Positions 3 through 5,941 of a stretch of DNA of 5,943 nt are shown here, piece by piece. This DNA comes from Akkermansiaceae bacterium (lineage in GTDB: Bacteria; Verrucomicrobiota; Verrucomicrobiia; Verrucomicrobiales; Akkermansiaceae): contig JALZWJ010000092.1 of NCBI GenBank assembly GCA_023300065.1, positions 1 through 5,943 of the forward strand, in the 5' to 3' direction. Each line of letters begins with the position of its first letter. Position 1 is the first letter of the stretch. Below the pieces are notes generated by a model. That model did not search any database. It saw only the letters and a list, made by a program, of their open reading frames with translations, and was not told the origin of the DNA. A program made the translations under genes and the position numbers.

Positions 3-584
3 GGCGTCTTCGGATCTCGCCCTTCTCGCCGCACTGGCAAGAAAGCCTCGCTCAAAGATCTGCGCGCGATCCCGTGGGTCTTCTCCTGGACGCAAGCCCG
101 CTTCTACCTCCCTGGTTGGTATGGCGTCGGCTCCGGGCTGGAGGCAATCGGCGAGGAAGCCTACCAGAACATTAAGGACAATCTTCCTAAGTTTGACTTC
201 CTCCGCTACGTCTTCACCAACATCGAGTCCTCCCTCGCCTCCGCGAATATGGAGACGATGAAGCAGTATGCGAACCTCTGCCCGGATGAAGCTCTGCGTG
301 AGCGTCTCCTCAGCCAGATCTTAGAGGAATATGATAAAACCCGTAGATTAGTATACGACCTCTTCGGCCGTGAATTCGACTCCCGCCGCCCTCGCATGGA
401 GAAAACGCTCGCGGTGCGTGAGGTCCCTCTGGAGGTTCTCCACAAACAGCAGATCTCATTGTTGAAAAATTGGCGTGCTGCGGGGAGCCCCGTGGAGGAG
501 GAAGGTGGACGCTTTGACCGCGACTTCCTCGCGCTCCAACTCACCATCAATGCAATCTCATCCGGCCTCCGCGAGACGGGTTGA
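3..584 (+). CDS. ppc: Phosphoenolpyruvate carboxylase, C-terminal part (5' end outside window)
   Basis: This is the last 193 residues of phosphoenolpyruvate carboxylase, the cytoplasmic enzyme that adds bicarbonate to PEP to give oxaloacetate and so refills the TCA cycle. The frame is open from base 3, with no start in the window; the internal ATG at 249 is not the real start. Family landmarks are plain. A GSRPSRR phosphate-site motif lies at the very beginning, followed by LRAIPWVFSWTQ and LPGWYGVGSGLE, which match the GSRPAKR, LRAIPWIFAWTQ and LPAWLGAGTAL blocks I recall from the E. coli enzyme. The protein ends in LTINAISSGLRETG, matching the hallmark C-terminus of the family, which usually ends in NTG; here the Asn is Glu. 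Full-length members are around 900 residues, so about four fifths lies upstream. The last stretch (about residues 80-193) is more divergent than the catalytic core, as usual. The next gene begins 51 bases downstream on the same strand, with no clear terminator between them. Confidence 0.96.
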   Translation, partial: GVFGSRPSRRTGKKASLKDLRAIPWVFSWTQARFYLPGWYGVGSGLEAIGEEAYQNIKDNLPKFDFLRYVFTNIESSLASANMETMKQYANLCPDEALRERLLSQILEEYDKTRRLVYDLFGREFDSRRPRMEKTLAVREVPLEVLHKQQISLLKNWRAAGSPVEEEGGRFDRDFLALQLTINAISSGLRETG

Positions 585-591
585 TCCACCT

Positions 592-620
592 TTGACACGC
601 TTGCCCTCTTCTCTGATTCA
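592..620 (+). promoter_or_regulatory. Possible sigma70-like promoter before the sugar dehydrogenase gene
   Basis: A perfect -35 hexamer TTGACA lies at 592-597 in the short gap after ppc. Seventeen bases on, the -10 position (615-620) reads GATTCA, a poor match to TATAAT. Transcription from here would start near 627, giving a very short leader before the ATG at 636. The weak -10 means this could be chance. Confidence 0.3.
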
Positions 621-635
621 AGCCATGGTTTGTGG

Positions 636-2282
636 ATGAGATTTATAAGCGCCCTACTCGCCTCGCTCCCTCTTTTCGCCTTTGGCGAGGCGAAGGTGCC
701 TGCGGACGAGCACTTCCGTGTCGATACGGTGGCGGGGGGCTTTGTTGATGCGATGGAAATCGCGGTCACGCCGAGGGGGGCTGTCTTCGTGATCGAGCGG
801 ACGGGGGCGTTAAAGATCGTGAATCCCGAGAGCGGGGAAATAAAGCTCATTGAGACGCTGCCCGTCGAGGTCCGTAAAGACCAATACGCACGGGAATGCG
901 GTTTACTAGGCATCACACTGGACCCGAACTTTGCAAAAAATCAGTGGCTTTATCTCTACTACTCGGCGAAGGAAAAATCAGTCCACCGGTTGGCTCGCTA
1001 TCAATTTGATGGGAAGAAAATCCACTCGCCTAAGACGCTCCTAGAAGTCCCGCAAGATCGTGAGAATGGAACCTGTCACGAGGGTGGGTCTTTGGCCTTT
1101 GGGCCGGATGGCTGCCTCTACCTCTCCACCGGAGATAACACATGCCCATTCAAATCAAATGGCTCAGCGCCGATCGACGAGGGCCCAGACCGCAAGTGGT
1201 ATGACGCGCAGCGCTCCGCCGGAAACACGAACGACCTACGTGGTAAAATCCTCCGTATCAAGCCCACCGCAGAAGGCGGCTACACGATTCCAGAAGGAAA
1301 CCTTTTCCCAAAAGGCACCGATAAAACAAAACCTGAGATCTACGTGATGGGGTGCCGGAATCCCTACCGAATCTCGGTCGATCAAAAAACGAATGACCTT
1401 TACTGGGGAAAAGTCGGCCCCGATGCCGGAAAGGACACCAGCCGTGGCCCACGTGGATATGACGAAATCAACCGGGCCCGCAAAGCCGGAAACTATGGCT
1501 GGCCCTACTTCAGCGCGGATAACAAGGCCTACACCGATTACGACTTCGTGACGAAGAAGAAGGGTGCAAAATTCGACCCCGCCAAGCCGATCAACACATC
1601 AGTCAACAACACTGGCCTCACCGAACTCCCCCCCGCTCAACCGGCCTTCTGGTTCTACTCACGCGCCTCAGCCTGCGCTGGTCCGGTCTTCTATGCCGAT
1701 CACTACCCGACTGATCAGGGCGGCCTCCCGAAGGCGCTCGATGGCTGCCTTATCATCTACGATTGGACCAGCACTTGGATGCGCCTCATCAAACTCGATG
1801 AAAAAGGTGACATCGCATGGAATGAATCTTGGCTTGGAAAATATCGTTTCGTCCATCCCGGCGATATGGAGATGGGGCCTAAGGGAGAGCTCTACATCCT
1901 CGAATACGGCTCAGCGTGGTATGATGGTAAGGACGGTAAATTAAAGCGTGTGACCTACTCCGATACCCCTCAAGTGATCGAAGCCCCGGCCTCTGATCCA
2001 CGCATGGCGGGCCTCCCTACGGATCACCCCGGCACCGCATTGATCGCCGGCACGACCTGCCTCGCGTGTCACAGCACCCAGCATCAATCGATTGGGCCAA
2101 GCTTCCGCGATGTTGCTAAAAAGTATCAGAACGATCCAAAGGCAAGCGAGACCCTCGCCGAGAAAATCATCAAAGGTGGCGTGGGAGTGTGGGGTGAGCA
2201 GCCGATGCCACCGCACCCGCAGCACAACATCGAAGAGACTCAGCAGATGATCGAGGCCATCCTTCAAGTCCCCACGAAATGA
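636..2282 (+). CDS. Exported PQQ-dependent sugar dehydrogenase-like protein with C-terminal cytochrome c domain
   Basis: Likely a periplasmic quinoprotein that oxidises a sugar or related alcohol with PQQ and passes electrons to its own haem c domain and then to the respiratory chain. Numbering is from the ATG at 636 (548 residues). That start gives a clean signal peptide (residues 1-19, MRFISALLASLPLFAFGEA); an in-frame TTG at 630 would add only Met-Trp, and neither has a clear ribosome binding site. Residues about 25-445 are a beta-propeller of the glucose/sorbosone dehydrogenase type. The landmarks are CHEGGSLAFGPDG with His148 at the position of the catalytic base, STGDNT, NTNDLRGKILRI, and GCRNPYRIS with Arg241-Asn242 matching the PQQ-contacting Arg-Asn of soluble glucose dehydrogenase. 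Residues about 462-548 form a class I cytochrome c: CLACH at 475-479 binds haem and Met524 in QPMPPHP is the probable axial ligand. Seven further cysteines in the propeller are many for an exported protein. The substrate cannot be read from the sequence. The stop overlaps the next start by 4 bases (ATGA). Confidence 0.9.
   Translation: MRFISALLASLPLFAFGEAKVPADEHFRVDTVAGGFVDAMEIAVTPRGAVFVIERTGALKIVNPESGEIKLIETLPVEVRKDQYARECGLLGITLDPNFAKNQWLYLYYSAKEKSVHRLARYQFDGKKIHSPKTLLEVPQDRENGTCHEGGSLAFGPDGCLYLSTGDNTCPFKSNGSAPIDEGPDRKWYDAQRSAGNTNDLRGKILRIKPTAEGGYTIPEGNLFPKGTDKTKPEIYVMGCRNPYRISVDQKTNDLYWGKVGPDAGKDTSRGPRGYDEINRARKAGNYGWPYFSADNKAYTDYDFVTKKKGAKFDPAKPINTSVNNTGLTELPPAQPAFWFYSRASACAGPVFYADHYPTDQGGLPKALDGCLIIYDWTSTWMRLIKLDEKGDIAWNESWLGKYRFVHPGDMEMGPKGELYILEYGSAWYDGKDGKLKRVTYSDTPQVIEAPASDPRMAGLPTDHPGTALIAGTTCLACHSTQHQSIGPSFRDVAKKYQNDPKASETLAEKIIKGGVGVWGEQPMPPHPQHNIEETQQMIEAILQVPTK
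2058..2072 (+). other. Haem c attachment motif CXXCH
   Basis: Codons for Cys-Leu-Ala-Cys-His, residues 475-479 of the dehydrogenase. This is the only CXXCH in the protein, so one covalent haem is expected. The likely Met ligand is encoded at 2205-2207. The spacing of about 45 residues fits a small cytochrome c of the c551/c552 kind. Confidence 0.92.
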
Positions 2283-2905
2283 CTCTCGTTTACCAAGACG
2301 AAGACATCGTGGTCGTCGAAAAACCCAGCGGCTTCCTCTCGGTTCCCGGACGTGGGCCGGAAAAAATTGATTCCGTCTCCCACCGGATCCGCACCACCAT
2401 TCCGGGGTGCATTGACCAGCCATCGGTCCACCGGCTCGATATGGACACCTCCGGCTTGATGGTATTGGCCCTCACCACAGAGGCCCACCGTCACCTCTCA
2501 CGGCAGTTTCAAGACCGCCTCACCGACAAGCACTACCTCGCCCTTTTAGAAGGTGAGTTGGCCGGGGAAGAAGGTGAAATCAACCTCCCCTTCCGCCTCG
2601 ATGTCGAGAACCGCCCGCACCAAATCTATGATGACGTGCATGGAAAAATGGGGACCACGCATTGGAAAAAAATCGGCATTGAAAACGGCCTGACCCGCAT
2701 CGCCTTTCACCCCATCACGGGGCGCACGCACCAACTGCGGGTGCACTCGGCGCATGAGAAAGGGCTCGGCATCCCCATCGTCGGGGACCCGCTCTATGGA
2801 AATGGAATCAACCCCGGCGAGATGAAACTCCACGCCACCGAGCTGACTTTCACCCACCCCACAACGGCTGAACGCCTCACGTTCAAGTCTCCCCCGCCGT
2901 TCTAA
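2279..2905 (+). CDS. rluA: RluA-family RNA pseudouridine synthase
   Basis: Cytoplasmic enzyme that isomerises specific uridines in RNA to pseudouridine; 208 residues, close to the 219 of E. coli RluA. The N-terminus LVYQDEDIVVVEKPSGFLSVPGR is very like that of E. coli RluA, which modifies 23S rRNA U746 and U32 of some tRNAs. The catalytic motif HRLDMDTSG lies at residues 51-59, with Asp54 as the nucleophile. QFQDR (76-80), an NRPHQ segment (111-115) and ITGRTHQLRVH (146-156) are the other family blocks, and VGDPLYG follows at 168-174. There is no N-terminal S4 domain, which also fits RluA rather than RluB/C/D/E/F types. The start ATG overlaps the dehydrogenase stop codon, so translation is probably coupled and the two genes are co-transcribed, although their functions have no obvious link. 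The family is certain; the exact RNA target is inferred by similarity. Confidence 0.93.
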   Translation: MTLVYQDEDIVVVEKPSGFLSVPGRGPEKIDSVSHRIRTTIPGCIDQPSVHRLDMDTSGLMVLALTTEAHRHLSRQFQDRLTDKHYLALLEGELAGEEGEINLPFRLDVENRPHQIYDDVHGKMGTTHWKKIGIENGLTRIAFHPITGRTHQLRVHSAHEKGLGIPIVGDPLYGNGINPGEMKLHATELTFTHPTTAERLTFKSPPPF

Positions 2906-2912
2906 GCGGCGG
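2894..2912 (+). repeat. GC-rich hairpin over the rluA stop codon
   Basis: CCGCCG (2894-2899) and CGGCGG (2907-2912) form a perfect 6-bp stem around a 7-base loop that contains the TAA stop. No T-run follows (the next bases are CCATCATCACC), so it does not look like a standard intrinsic terminator. It could still slow transcription or protect the 3' end of the upstream message. Confidence 0.35.
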
Positions 2913-2940
2913 CCATCATCACCTTCATCATCTACCTCCC

Positions 2941-2972
2941 TTGAAATAAACCTTGCATAACAAGGTAGCTTG
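2941..2972 (+). promoter_or_regulatory. Probable padR promoter/operator with overlapping inverted repeats
   Basis: The 84-base gap before padR holds a perfect inverted repeat, ACCTTG-CATAA-CAAGGT (2950-2966). Overlapping it is a second, smaller one, CAAG-GTAG-CTTG (2961-2972). A good -35-like hexamer TTGAAA (2941-2946) sits just upstream; the best -10 candidate, TAGCTT at 2966-2971, is weak and the spacing (19) is long. PadR proteins bind as dimers to short palindromes near their own promoters, so this is the natural place for autoregulation. The repeat is directly visible; its role as an operator is inferred. Confidence 0.5.
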
Positions 2973-2989
2973 CCGTTAGTTATTTTCAT

Positions 2990-3334
2990 ATGAGCGATGG
3001 CTTCGACAACTGGACAGTCCAACTTCGGAAGGGCATTCTGGAGTTCTGCGTCCTCTCCTCCATCGCCGCGGACGAAGAAAGCTACGGTTACGAACTGGTC
3101 AAAAAGCTCGTCAATGCCCCCGGCCTCGATGCCTCAGAGGGAAGCATCTACCCCCTTCTCTCACGCATGAGAAAACAAGGACTCATCCAGTCCCGGCTCG
3201 AAGAAAGCGATGCTGGCCCCGCCCGTAAATACTACCGCCTCACAGCGACTGGCAAGGCCCGCAGTCTCGCCATGAAGTCTTACTACGGCAGCCTCACCGC
3301 CGCCGTACAATCACTCAGCAATCCTCAAAAATAA
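2990..3334 (+). CDS. PadR-family transcriptional regulator
   Basis: A small winged-helix DNA-binding protein of 114 residues, the usual size of the short PadR subfamily that has only the DNA-binding domain and one dimerisation helix. Diagnostic motifs run through the whole length: NWTVQLRKGILEFCVLSSI (residues 7-25), SYGYELVKKL (31-40), ASEGSIYPLLSRMRKQGLI (48-66, recognition helix and following strand), ESDAGPARKYYRLTATG (72-88), then a C-terminal helix (about 89-110). PadR proteins are mostly repressors that release DNA on binding a ligand or partner; no ligand can be inferred here. It begins after an intergenic region with palindromes, has no visible Shine-Dalgarno sequence, and lies 6 bases before the large membrane protein gene, which is almost certainly in the same operon and its main target. 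Confidence 0.95.
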   Translation: MSDGFDNWTVQLRKGILEFCVLSSIAADEESYGYELVKKLVNAPGLDASEGSIYPLLSRMRKQGLIQSRLEESDAGPARKYYRLTATGKARSLAMKSYYGSLTAAVQSLSNPQK

Positions 3335-3340
3335 TTTTTC

Positions 3341-5941
3341 ATGAAGAACGATCATTGGCTCACCCAAGAAGCCCGACATGCCCTCGATACTTGGGAACAA
3401 ACTCACCGCGCTCGGTGGGAGCTTGAGCAAGCAGACCCTAAGGAAGTGCGAGCAGATCTGGAAGCCCACCTCTGGCACAGCCGCGAGGGAAGCACGGAGC
3501 CCGTCACCCTTCCGCAAGTAGAAAGAGCGATTGATGAAATGGCTCTGCCCAGCATGCAGGTTTGGGAATCCTCCCCCATTAGACAGGAACCTCGCCGCGG
3601 CTTCTTAAGGCGTTGCGCAGGATTCTTCACGATGCCCTTTTTCTACAGTATCTGGCCGCTCGTGATCGTCCTTGGTGAGATTTTCACCGGCACACTTGCC
3701 TCCTTGTTTTTTGATCCCCTTTCCCGCCTTCCTCAAATCATCCTCATCCTTTCCTTTTCCATTTTAGGCCTCTTTAACCTCTTCAACACTTTTGAAAAAT
3801 CGAGACCTATCTGGCTCACCATTCTCCGTGGCGCGGGTGTTATTGTCGCTGGATACTGGGGGCTCCTCCTCCTGCCCATCCTTCTCATCGGAACCCTCGG
3901 GTATGGCGCAGGAGTCATCGCGACCGTCGGGTTAGGCCTCTTAGCGGTCCCCCTATTCCTCCTGTGCGCGCTGGCCGCAGCCGCGCCGCTTTACCTTACC
4001 TTTGGGTTCCTTAAACGCGGTTATCCAGAATCTCATCACACCCCTTGGCTCATCGGAATGCTCCTCGGCCTCGGTCTGTTGCTCCTTGTCGAGGCTCCCG
4101 CCTACATCACCCGCTATGGCGTAGCCAACAACAATCCAGCTCTCATTCGGAGTCTAGGCTCTGAGGAAACCCTTCTCGCGATGTGCTACGAGGGCCCGAT
4201 TGGCCAAAGAAGTTTCACTGATACTTCAGGTTTCATTCCGAGTCTTTTGAGGACCACCTTCTTCAGCTCCAGCTCAAGAACGAAAAACCGCAGCGAGCAA
4301 AATCACGAACTCTATTACCGCGTCACTGGCCGCGCTTTCAATAGCGAAGAACCACCAAGCTCTGGGCTTTTCAGCCATGGGGGTGGACGAACCGCAGGCG
4401 GGGTAATTTTCGATAAAGATCTCGGAAGCGATGGAGTCTCCGCTCGTGTCGCAGATCTCGATCTCGCGACCTCTCGGCTCGATGCTCACGTCGATTCGGC
4501 CTCCGGCCTTGGCTATTGGGAATGGACCATGGAGTTCGAAAACTCCGGTTTCCGTAACAAAGAAGCCCGCATGCAGCTGCTCCTTCCGAACGAGGGAGTC
4601 GTCTCCCGCCTCACACTCTGGGTCAATGGCGAGGCCCAAGAAGCCGCCTTTTCCTCCACCGCAAAAGTGACGCAAGCCTACAAATCTGTCGCCGTCGCAG
4701 AAAGGCGCGACCCCGTCCTAGTTCGCTGGGTAGGATCCGACCGCGTCCTTGTTCAATGCTTCCCCGTTCTCCCGGAAGAAAACATGCGCATCCGGATCGG
4801 CATCACCGCCCCGCTCGATTCTGACGGCCGTCTTTTCCTGCCCCGTATCATCGAGAAAAACTTTGGGATCTCCGCCGAGCTCGACACCGATATCTGGGTT
4901 CAAGGCGATCTCGAAATGTCCCTCGATGGCCTCAAAGGAAAAGGGACAAAAGGTCAATGGCGCGAGACTCACGGCACCCTCTCAGCTCGCCACCTCATGG
5001 CCGCCCACACCCACGTGCAATGTGCGCTTCCAGACCAAGTCGGCACCGTCTGGACCGGCGATCAATTCTCCGGTAAAAAGCTCGTCCGCATCCCCCTCCC
5101 CGCAAACACCAAAACCGAAAAACAAAGCGTCGTCCTTGTCGTCGATGGCTCATCATACTTTGGCGATTGGGCTGATGCCGCAGACGAGGCCATTGCCGTG
5201 CTGCGTAACTCAGGTCATGAAATCGAAGTCATTCTCGCCGCCAATGAAGAGGTTCATACAAACTTCACCAGTCTCAGCGAATTCCACTTCGGTGGCGGAC
5301 AGGACTGCATTCCAGCACTGGAAGCAGGCCTCCACCTCGCCAACGAGAGGCGCACCCGCCACCTCATCTGGCTGCACGGATCCCAGCCCGTTTCATTTAA
5401 GAACGAAGAAGGCTTCCTCCAGCTTCTTGAACGAGGCTTCCATCAAGTTGACTTCAGCGTCATCGACCTCGCCGGAGGCCCAAATCGTCTTCTCGAAAAA
5501 GCGGCCAAACGGATTGGAATCGCGAACAACGCCCGCCCCAGTTCACCTGATAAACTTTCTGCCGAACTCGTAAAACTCATCCAGCCGAGTTCTCAGAAAT
5601 TCCAGTGGCTTGAGCAACCCGCCGCCCCTACCGAAGGGCAAGAAGTCTGGGATCACCTCGCCCGCTGGCACGTCTGGCAGCAGGTTAAAAAGCACGCCGT
5701 TGGATCCACCGATCACGCCCACCTCGCAAAGATCGCCGCAAAATACCAACTCGTCACCCCTGTGAGTGGAGCGGTCGTCTTAGAAACGAAGCAGGACTAT
5801 CAGCGCTTCGGCCTCAAACAAGTCGACGCCTCCACAACCCCGTCCATCCCGGGAGTTCCGGAGCCCTCCACCGCCCTTCTCACTTTCCTCGGCAGCCTCA
5901 TGCTCTTTCGCCGTAACCGCGCCCTCCCTACGAAGGGTTAA
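3341..5941 (+). CDS. PadR-linked polytopic membrane protein with HAAS-like, VIT and vWA-like domains and PEP-CTERM signal
   Basis: An 866-residue envelope protein of unknown role. Residues about 5-85 are soluble and helical (PKEVRADLEAHLWHSRE, then LPQVERAIDEMALP), resembling the HAAS/DUF1700-type domains found beside PadR genes. About five membrane helices follow (near 101-123, 132-150, 164-186, 189-221, 236-256). Lys/Arg-rich loops at 152-163 and 225-226 put the N-terminus in the cytoplasm and everything after 257 in the periplasm. Residues 258-385 have no domain I recognise. Residues about 390-490 look like a VIT domain (WEWTMEFENSGFRNKEARM, LLLPNEGVVSRLTLWVNGE, QAYKSV). Residues about 595-728 look like a von Willebrand A fold, but its metal site is degraded. 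A tail with LVTPVSGAVVLET (804-816) leads to VPEPSTALLTF (839-849), a hydrophobic stretch and RRNR, a standard PEP-CTERM signal for exosortase. There is no Shine-Dalgarno sequence; the ATG 6 bases after padR is the first in frame and gives a complete HAAS-like domain. Overall it resembles the VIT proteins of exosortase systems in Bacteroidota. Domain order is well supported; function is not. Confidence 0.88.
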   Translation: MKNDHWLTQEARHALDTWEQTHRARWELEQADPKEVRADLEAHLWHSREGSTEPVTLPQVERAIDEMALPSMQVWESSPIRQEPRRGFLRRCAGFFTMPFFYSIWPLVIVLGEIFTGTLASLFFDPLSRLPQIILILSFSILGLFNLFNTFEKSRPIWLTILRGAGVIVAGYWGLLLLPILLIGTLGYGAGVIATVGLGLLAVPLFLLCALAAAAPLYLTFGFLKRGYPESHHTPWLIGMLLGLGLLLLVEAPAYITRYGVANNNPALIRSLGSEETLLAMCYEGPIGQRSFTDTSGFIPSLLRTTFFSSSSRTKNRSEQNHELYYRVTGRAFNSEEPPSSGLFSHGGGRTAGGVIFDKDLGSDGVSARVADLDLATSRLDAHVDSASGLGYWEWTMEFENSGFRNKEARMQLLLPNEGVVSRLTLWVNGEAQEAAFSSTAKVTQAYKSVAVAERRDPVLVRWVGSDRVLVQCFPVLPEENMRIRIGITAPLDSDGRLFLPRIIEKNFGISAELDTDIWVQGDLEMSLDGLKGKGTKGQWRETHGTLSARHLMAAHTHVQCALPDQVGTVWTGDQFSGKKLVRIPLPANTKTEKQSVVLVVDGSSYFGDWADAADEAIAVLRNSGHEIEVILAANEEVHTNFTSLSEFHFGGGQDCIPALEAGLHLANERRTRHLIWLHGSQPVSFKNEEGFLQLLERGFHQVDFSVIDLAGGPNRLLEKAAKRIGIANNARPSSPDKLSAELVKLIQPSSQKFQWLEQPAAPTEGQEVWDHLARWHVWQQVKKHAVGSTDHAHLAKIAAKYQLVTPVSGAVVLETKQDYQRFGLKQVDASTTPSIPGVPEPSTALLTFLGSLMLFRRNRALPTKG
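3353..3595 (+). other. HAAS-like cytoplasmic domain of the VIT protein
   Basis: Residues 5-85 are charged and helical. DPKEVRADLEAHL (32-44) resembles the helix of HAAS-type domains that carries the EELEEHL-like signature, and PQVERAIDEMALP (58-70) resembles the following EEAIERLGDP-like segment. HAAS-type domains occur in membrane proteins encoded beside PadR genes. Similarity was judged by eye. Confidence 0.6.
4508..4810 (+). other. VIT-like domain region
   Basis: Residues 390-490 follow the usual course of a VIT (vault/inter-alpha-trypsin) domain. There is a strand pair with FENSGFRNKEA, then LLLPNEGVVSRLTLWVNG, an A-x-x-x-Y turn (AKVTQAYKSV), a DPVLVRW strand, and a closing VLPEENMRIRIGITAPL strand. 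VIT domains usually precede a vWA domain, as here, and are often found in secreted or surface proteins. Confidence 0.7.
5123..5524 (+). other. vWA-like domain region with degenerate MIDAS
   Basis: Residues 595-728 begin with QSVVLVVDGSSYF, matching the first strand and DxSxS loop of a von Willebrand A domain. They continue through GGGQDCIPALEAGL and RHLIWLHGSQP, the positions of the GGT and TDG motifs. Asp602 and Ser604 are present. The third loop residue is Tyr606 instead of Ser, the Thr of GGT is Gln654, and the Asp of TDG is His679. Metal binding of the usual kind is therefore doubtful. Confidence 0.6.
5855..5920 (+). other. PEP-CTERM exosortase sorting signal
   Basis: Residues 839-860 hold VPEPST, a hydrophobic helix (ALLTFLGSLMLF) and a basic end (RRNR). 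This is the three-part PEP-CTERM signal cut by exosortases in exopolysaccharide-producing Gram-negative bacteria. Only six residues follow. No exosortase gene lies in the window. Confidence 0.88.

What the first reader, a model, noticed from the sequence alone, without database searches (positions are those of the whole stretch)
2990..5941. PadR plus HAAS-TM-VIT-vWA-PEP-CTERM protein: a candidate two-gene envelope module
The sequence shows a short PadR gene and, 6 bases later, an 866-residue protein. That protein has a HAAS-like cytoplasmic domain, about five membrane helices, a VIT domain, a vWA-like domain and a PEP-CTERM signal. PadR/HAAS pairs are known as regulatory modules. VIT proteins that are exosortase targets are known in Bacteroidota (XrtK/XrtN-type systems). 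Joining the two themes suggests that a cytoplasmic PadR circuit controls a surface protein, or that the HAAS domain senses the state of the ectodomain. What the module does is unknown.
Basis: partly seen in the sequence, partly recalled or inferred. Interest (0 to 1): 0.7.

Follow-up and report, generated by a model that had tools for sequence, protein, structure and literature searches.

The report
PadR-wired sorted envelope protein
In Verrucomicrobiota and related bacteria a small repressor gene and one inner tail of the membrane protein encoded next to it are nearly always found or missing together, and the repressor likely switches off its own operon at a conserved DNA site until that tail is predicted to release it.

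Summary
A PadR gene (2990-3334) is followed after 6 bases by an 866-aa protein with a three-helix N-terminal domain, about five membrane helices, an ectodomain folding like inter-alpha-inhibitor heavy chain 1 (VIT plus vWA) and a PEP-CTERM tail. It is not an accidental arrangement. Of 99 scorable non-identical homologues, 69 of 71 with the N-terminal domain have padR upstream and 0 of 28 without it do. That domain is HAAS: Pfam HAAS is its commonest match (14 of 40 members, best E 2.8e-6), and it is the stretch that best tracks PadR divergence. A palindrome TACCTTG-N5-CAAGGTA (window 2949-2967) lies upstream in 60 of 69 padR loci and 0 of 33 padR-less ones. So a HAAS-PadR dyad has been joined to an XrtN-like exosortase-target family. 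Autorepression, HAAS-PadR contact and the signal are inferred. The exosortase link rests on the sorting signal and on adjacent exosortase genes in relatives; genome co-occurrence gives no support. The strict tree test leans one way but is not significant. New variant of a known kind.

The parts
2949..2967 (.). Candidate PadR operator: AACCTTGCATAACAAGGTA, palindrome ACCTTG-N5-CAAGGT at 2950-2966, 23 nt before the padR start
   Evidence: Exact inverted repeat; only exact copy in the held genome; like sites in 60 of 69 padR loci and 0 of 33 padR-less loci
2990..3334 (+). padR, 114 aa
   Evidence: PF03551 75 bits, cut-off 27
3341..5941 (+). 866-aa HAAS-TM-VIT-vWA-PEP-CTERM protein
3341..3556 (+). 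HAAS domain, residues 1-72
   Evidence: Three helices; Pfam HAAS in 14 of 40 family N-termini; hhalign to perm_prefix_1, prob 79.8, E 1.5e-5
3635..4114 (+). Membrane region, residues 99-258, about five helices
4442..5800 (+). ITIH-like ectodomain, residues 368-820
   Evidence: Foldseek and VIA-align matches to ITIH1
4514..4798 (+). VIT domain, residues 392-486
   Evidence: PF08487 over cut-off
5102..5590 (+). vWA-like domain, residues 588-750
5855..5920 (+). PEP-CTERM sorting signal, residues 839-860
   Evidence: TIGR02595 18.3 bits, cut-off 16; P840 and E841 invariant in 106 rows

Best explanation
The window encodes a PadR-HAAS regulatory pair joined to an ITIH-like PEP-CTERM membrane protein, in which PadR likely represses its own operon at the palindrome ACCTTG-N5-CAAGGT and is predicted to be released when the membrane protein's cytoplasmic HAAS domain changes state. 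Shown by computation: the gene pair, the domains, their joint presence or absence in homologues, the recurrent palindrome and its absence where padR is absent. Inferred: PadR binds the palindrome and autorepresses; HAAS contacts PadR; the trigger comes from the periplasmic VIT-vWA ectodomain or from the state of its C-terminal sorting signal. Because the protein is also anchored near its N-terminus by about five helices, cutting at the PEP motif would not free it to the surface; it would leave an inner-membrane protein whose far end has been cut or coupled to something in the envelope, which is a natural thing for a sensor to report. On this reading the pair does the work of a two-component system for envelope state.
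For: padR upstream of 69 of 71 HAAS-bearing and 0 of 28 HAAS-less homologues; in the first set 51 of 60 gaps are 22 nt or less, many a 4-base overlap. Operator-like palindrome in 60 of 69 padR loci, 0 of 33 padR-less; for loci fetched after the motif was fixed, 10 of 10 and 0 of 9. HAAS identity: 14 of 40, profile match with controls. PadR distances over 57 loci follow HAAS (r 0.845, partial 0.409 given the rest) more than any of 21 equal-length blocks of the protein (r at most 0.780, partial at most 0.286). Sorting signal invariant. Three loci with a diverged N-terminus lack padR; there the gene follows creD, and in the one profiled (L233) a response regulator and a histidine kinase lie downstream. 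Precedent: the Listeria PadR LltR represses its own operon, which holds a DUF1700 membrane protein, about 150-fold (PMC6624303); Ravi et al. define the HAAS-PadR dyad as a stand-in for two-component systems (PMC11237479).
Against: No binding, expression or processing data. The independent-pairs test is one-sided but not significant: 5 of 5 (p 0.0625) on the first tree, 3 of 4 with 1 undecided and 0 opposed (p 0.25) on the larger one, which has long branches. Exceptions L073 and L226 have HAAS without padR. Nine of 69 padR loci lack a site of 11 or more within 1200 nt. 6 of 26 perm_prefix padR loci also reach 11 of 14, none 12, so the motif is not wholly private. The correlation only partly removes shared descent. 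No exosortase co-occurrence. HAAS model finds no significant PDB match.
Confidence: 0.55

Rival explanations
1. HAAS is a level gauge only: newly inserted membrane protein binds PadR through HAAS and sets its own dose, with no sensing by the ectodomain or by sorting.
For: Same linkage, operator and co-divergence data; Listeria PadR proteins mainly regulate their own operons by negative feedback (PMC6624303).
Against: Would not need so conserved an ectodomain and sorting signal for the circuit itself, though these may serve the protein's own work.
Confidence: 0.27
2. PadR answers directly to a small envelope-active compound; HAAS is a passenger or a membrane tether.
For: LftR of Listeria responds to aurantimycin, and its authors suspect compounds as signals for the others (PMC6624303).
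Against: HAAS and padR are found and missing together (97 of 99) and HAAS follows PadR divergence most closely, which a passenger would not explain.
Confidence: 0.12
3. The two genes stand side by side by accident.
For: 28 HAAS-less relatives manage without padR.
Against: 69 of 71 linkage in records from several phyla and a shared operator-like site.
Confidence: 0.02

Closest known systems
HAAS-PadR-like wHTH dyad (Ravi et al. 2024, PMC11237479; passages seen)
   Same: Standalone PadR gene beside a protein with an N-terminal three-helix HAAS domain fused to membrane helices
   Different: The passages seen list PspC, Toastrack, FtsX-like, FtsW-like and other partners, not a VIT-vWA ectodomain or a sorting signal
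LltR operon of Listeria (Hauf et al. 2019, PMC6624303; abstract, Discussion and passages seen)
   Same: padR then a DUF1700 membrane protein; autorepression measured there
   Different: There the exoprotein is a separate gene with DUF4097; here ectodomain and HAAS are one protein
XrtN-system VIT protein (TIGR04477), MSEP-CTERM (TIGR04286), PEP-CTERM integral protein (TIGR02921)
   Same: Homologous over the VIT region, some also over the membrane region; 49, 41 and 19 of 49 members match at E up to 1
   Different: Under the TIGR04477 equivalog cut-off (126 of 250 bits); whether those models hold a HAAS domain or a PadR neighbour was not tested
perm_prefix_1 permeases (NF038403) with PadR
   Same: padR found in 26 of 31 fetched loci; weak profile homology of the N-terminal domain; operator-like sites of like geometry, by eye
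   Different: Different membrane and outer domains; other operator letters
Inter-alpha-inhibitor heavy chain 1 (ITIH1)
   Same: Ectodomain fold over residues 368-820
   Different: Animal secreted protein (recalled); 11-12% identity; no HAAS, membrane region or PEP signal known to me

Membership tests
HAAS domain (PF22564; Ravi et al.) | Profile match | tested here: met
   14 of 40 family N-termini match at E up to 10, best 2.8e-6, the commonest family; the window's own N-terminus gives no hit
HAAS domain (PF22564; Ravi et al.) | Three consecutive helices | tested here: met
   Helices 9-28, 33-47, 57-66/68 in two models
HAAS domain (PF22564; Ravi et al.) | GxP motif at the third helix | tested here: inconclusive
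   By eye: GAP, GEP or GSP in several rows, ALP in the window, absent in others; not counted
HAAS-PadR dyad | Standalone PadR gene adjoining | tested here: met
   69 of 71 HAAS-bearing homologues, window included
HAAS-PadR dyad | HAAS passes a signal to PadR | not testable with these tools
   Only indirect: co-divergence
HAAS fold in the PDB | Structural match to a solved HAAS protein | tested here: inconclusive
PadR (PF03551) | Curated cut-off of 27 bits | tested here: met
   75 bits
padR_acidobact (TIGR03433) | Curated cut-off of 101.8 bits | tested here: not met
   56.5 bits
XrtN system VIT protein (TIGR04477) | Equivalog cut-off of 250 bits | tested here: not met
   125.8 bits
XrtN system VIT protein (TIGR04477) | Cognate exosortase next door | tested here: inconclusive
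   Window contig ends 2 bases after the gene; exosortase adjoins in 11 of 91 loci and 6 of 14 others
PEP-CTERM protein (TIGR02595) | Curated cut-off of 16 bits | tested here: met
   18.3 bits
PEP-CTERM protein (TIGR02595) | Cleaved by an exosortase | not testable with these tools
   No experiment
VIT (PF08487) | Curated cut-off of 26.5 bits | tested here: met
   28.4 bits
vWA domain | Pfam vWA profile | tested here: not met
   No hit on the window; VWA_2 in 2 and VWA_3 in 1 of 49 members, best E 0.075
vWA domain | Fold | tested here: met
Exosortase Q (NF012182), for the window genome's exosortase | Cut-off of 270 bits | tested here: not met
   145.2 bits, its best NCBIfam hit

The most novel reading that the evidence does not exclude
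A sortase-type substrate that reports on its own processing: the ITIH-like ectodomain and invariant PEP signal are the sensor, five helices carry its state across the inner membrane, and HAAS-PadR turns it into transcription, so the cell reads exosortase or envelope status with one membrane protein in place of a two-component system.
Probability: 0.18. Interest if true: 0.85.

Novelty: new variant of a known kind. Interest (0 to 1): 0.6.

Why it matters
Multi-membrane PEP-CTERM proteins with VIT domains are catalogued as exosortase targets, with no function that I know of. Tying one branch of them to a specific repressor, a conserved operator-like site and a cytoplasmic signalling domain makes their role testable and would carry HAAS-PadR signalling into the exosortase world. 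Searches of the open full-text library for exosortase with VIT domain (0 papers), exosortase with PadR (1 paper, an archaeal genome by its listing) and XrtN or XrtK (no relevant title) showed no report of such a link; papers of subscription journals are not covered.

Tried and rejected
Exosortase co-occurrence as proof of function. In family f1, 28 of 145 genomes have the protein; 25 of these 28 have a PF09721 exosortase, the three without (G141, G214, G242) being 58-77% complete; of the 20 that are near complete all 20 do, but so do 99 of 109 near-complete genomes overall. The exosortase subfamily that adjoins some members: 20 of 141 genomes of the order; the protein, at places below E 1e-50: 23 of 141; both: 4, about 3.3 expected.

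PadR regulon beyond its operon. In G000 one exact site and eight with one mismatch, control pattern three. In nine genomes, of four exact sites three lie at the operon and one (G091) elsewhere; one-mismatch sites elsewhere are about as many as control sites. Three non-operon sites examined lie inside ORFs.

PDB matches of the HAAS domain by sequence or fold: nothing convincing. padR in trans for the two exceptions: G274 has none; the genome of L073 has one PadR-like frame, beside another membrane protein whose start looks HAAS-like by eye. A sigma-70 promoter: none found in 2880-3060; the terminator-like hit there is the palindrome itself. Rfam: no match in the window.

Rows dropped before counts: of the first 102 loci, 11 with an identical protein stretch and 5 broken or cut (L019, L020, L023, L038, L062), leaving 86. 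Of 23 later loci 18 were duplicates, 3 were added, L201 (contig edge) and L204 (fragment, has padR) were left out of the tree; L204 is counted. Of 28 more 11 were duplicates, 15 were added, and L231 and L232 are further matches of genes already in. L080 and L096 (contig edge) and L221-L223 (diverged N-terminus, no padR) stand outside the 71 and 28. L083 counts as HAAS-bearing although its HAAS frame is broken off from the rest.

Full report
What is there. The window is a whole 5943-base contig of a 2.2 Mb genome held as 65% complete; its nearest named relatives are Verrucomicrobiales and Akkermansiaceae MAGs. All listed genes run on the + strand: the end of PEP carboxylase, a glucose/sorbosone dehydrogenase with a cytochrome c domain, an RluA-type pseudouridine synthase, padR and the 866-aa gene. 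The contig ends two bases after that gene. In the closest named relative (L035, 82% identity) the same RluA-padR order is seen and the next gene starts 21 nt after the VIT gene.

Protein anatomy. Pfam and NCBIfam give VIT and PEP-CTERM over cut-off and a below-cut-off match to the XrtN target family. The model built on 106 homologues is confident (pLDDT 91.5) and its ectodomain is that of ITIH1. I infer from helix count and basic residues a cytoplasmic N-terminus, about five membrane helices, a periplasmic ectodomain and a C-terminal helix with a basic tail. P840 and E841 of the PEP motif are invariant in 106 rows.

Is the N-terminal domain HAAS? The window's own stretch hits nothing. Of 40 family N-termini 14 hit Pfam HAAS, best E 2.8e-6, more than any other family; the next, PCP_red, has 10, best 0.002. 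A profile of the family aligns with the PadR-associated perm_prefix_1 domain at probability 79.8 and E 1.5e-5; 60 column shuffles reach at best E 0.021, 18 decoy blocks of the same protein at best 0.0058, and PadR itself 0.0075. Both models give three helices, as Ravi et al. describe for HAAS.

Linkage. 102 loci from two searches gave 86 usable non-identical rows: HAAS with padR 60, HAAS without 1 (L073), neither 23, contig edge 2. In the 60, 51 gaps between the genes are 22 nt or less and many are a 4-base overlap; L018 has an extra gene in between. Adding 18 rows from two more searches gives 69, 2, 28 and 2, plus 3 rows with a diverged N-terminus and no padR. HAAS-less versions occur in Verrucomicrobiaceae, in Pseudomonadota such as Duganella and Massilia, in one member of the window's own clade (L037) and elsewhere. 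On the first tree, built without the HAAS columns, each trait changes 7 times and 5 of 5 independent pairs agree (p 0.0625); on the larger tree HAAS changes 9 and padR 8 times, 3 of 4 pairs agree, 1 is undecided and none oppose (p 0.25), with long branches flagged. The trend is one-sided but not significant by that strict test. L226 (weak HAAS, no padR) is sister to L230 (neither), which looks like decay after loss of padR; that is inference.

Operator. The palindrome at window 2950-2966 recurs before padR. Scored on 14 positions, 37 of 58 loci reach 11 within 120 nt of padR (Markov controls 0.28%), while 0 of 23 HAAS-less genes reach 10 within 250 nt. Of 19 low-scoring loci, 15 have a site of 11 or more further up, for example L004 14 of 14 at -823, before extra operon genes. 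Over 1200 nt before the VIT gene: 60 of 69 padR loci reach 11 (48 reach 12; shuffles 1.5% and 0) and 0 of 33 padR-less ones; loci fetched after the motif was fixed give 10 of 10 and 0 of 9. Among 26 perm_prefix padR loci 6 reach 11 and none 12; by eye several carry TACATCG-type palindromes of like geometry.

Coupled divergence. Over 57 loci PadR distances correlate with the whole core (r 0.855), and with HAAS (0.845) more than with any of 21 overlapping equal-length blocks (0.647-0.780); partial correlation 0.409 against at most 0.286. Shared descent is only partly removed by this.

Exosortase. In 11 of 91 loci the next gene is an exosortase of one subfamily, in 10 of them with an EpsI-like gene or fusion: 8 HAAS-less and 3 HAAS-bearing loci. 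Of 53 HAAS-bearing loci with at least 1 kb downstream 2 have it. Six of 14 further loci also have it. The one exosortase detected in the window's incomplete genome, on another contig, is of this subfamily (E 4.5e-59), fused to the EpsI-like domain and next to a second VIT-vWA protein with a PEP-CTERM tail. That is suggestive, but across 141 genomes of the order subfamily and protein are independent: 20, 23, shared 4, 3.3 expected. So I claim target status from the signal and from adjacency in relatives, not from co-occurrence.

Regulator swap. In one genus (L221-L223) the gene lies between a creD-like gene and the exosortase; in the one profiled (L233) creD is PF06123 at E 2e-124 and a response regulator and histidine kinase lie downstream. 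This fits the published idea that HAAS-PadR stands in for two-component systems.

Mechanism and limits. Best reading: a local autorepressor whose release is set by HAAS. Autorepression has good indirect support and a precedent in Listeria; HAAS-PadR contact has moderate support; the nature of the signal has none yet. Papers: PMC11237479, passages only; PMC6624303, abstract, Discussion and passages; all others, search listings only.

Noticed in passing
L233 (G426), with like loci L234 and L235: Gene order creD, VIT protein with a diverged N-terminus, exosortase, EpsI-like gene, response regulator, histidine kinase on one strand (L233); padR not found. A two-component system seems to stand in for PadR.
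   Followed up: partly
L168 (G000:C127) 502-4532: In the window's own genome a TIGR03788-like VIT-vWA protein with PEP-CTERM tail (502-2403), an XrtQ-like exosortase fused to an EpsI-like domain (2450-3736) and a 267-aa protein with no family hit (3732-4532) lie in a row.
   Followed up: partly
L242 7717-9000: A second padR followed by a gene whose start looks HAAS-like lies just upstream of the padR-VIT-exosortase operon.
   Followed up: no
L004, L008, L051, L056, L062, L068 before padR; L018 between padR and the VIT gene: A related small gene of about 150 aa (QPGPSGV motif) belongs to the operon in some loci; the operator-like site then lies further upstream in several of them.
   Followed up: partly
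L126, L133, L140, L142, L114: padR genes beside perm_prefix_1 proteins carry palindromes of like geometry but other letters (TACATCG-N5-CGATGTA type), perhaps a specificity code among PadR-HAAS pairs.
   Followed up: no
L037 and L042 (one MAG); L241 and L242 (G423): One genome can hold both a HAAS-less, padR-less copy and a HAAS-bearing, padR-linked copy.
   Followed up: no
window 5144-5377 (residues 602-679): In the vWA fold D602 is invariant and S604 and H679 are at least 90% conserved; by my reading His679 sits where a metal-binding Asp is usual.
   Followed up: no
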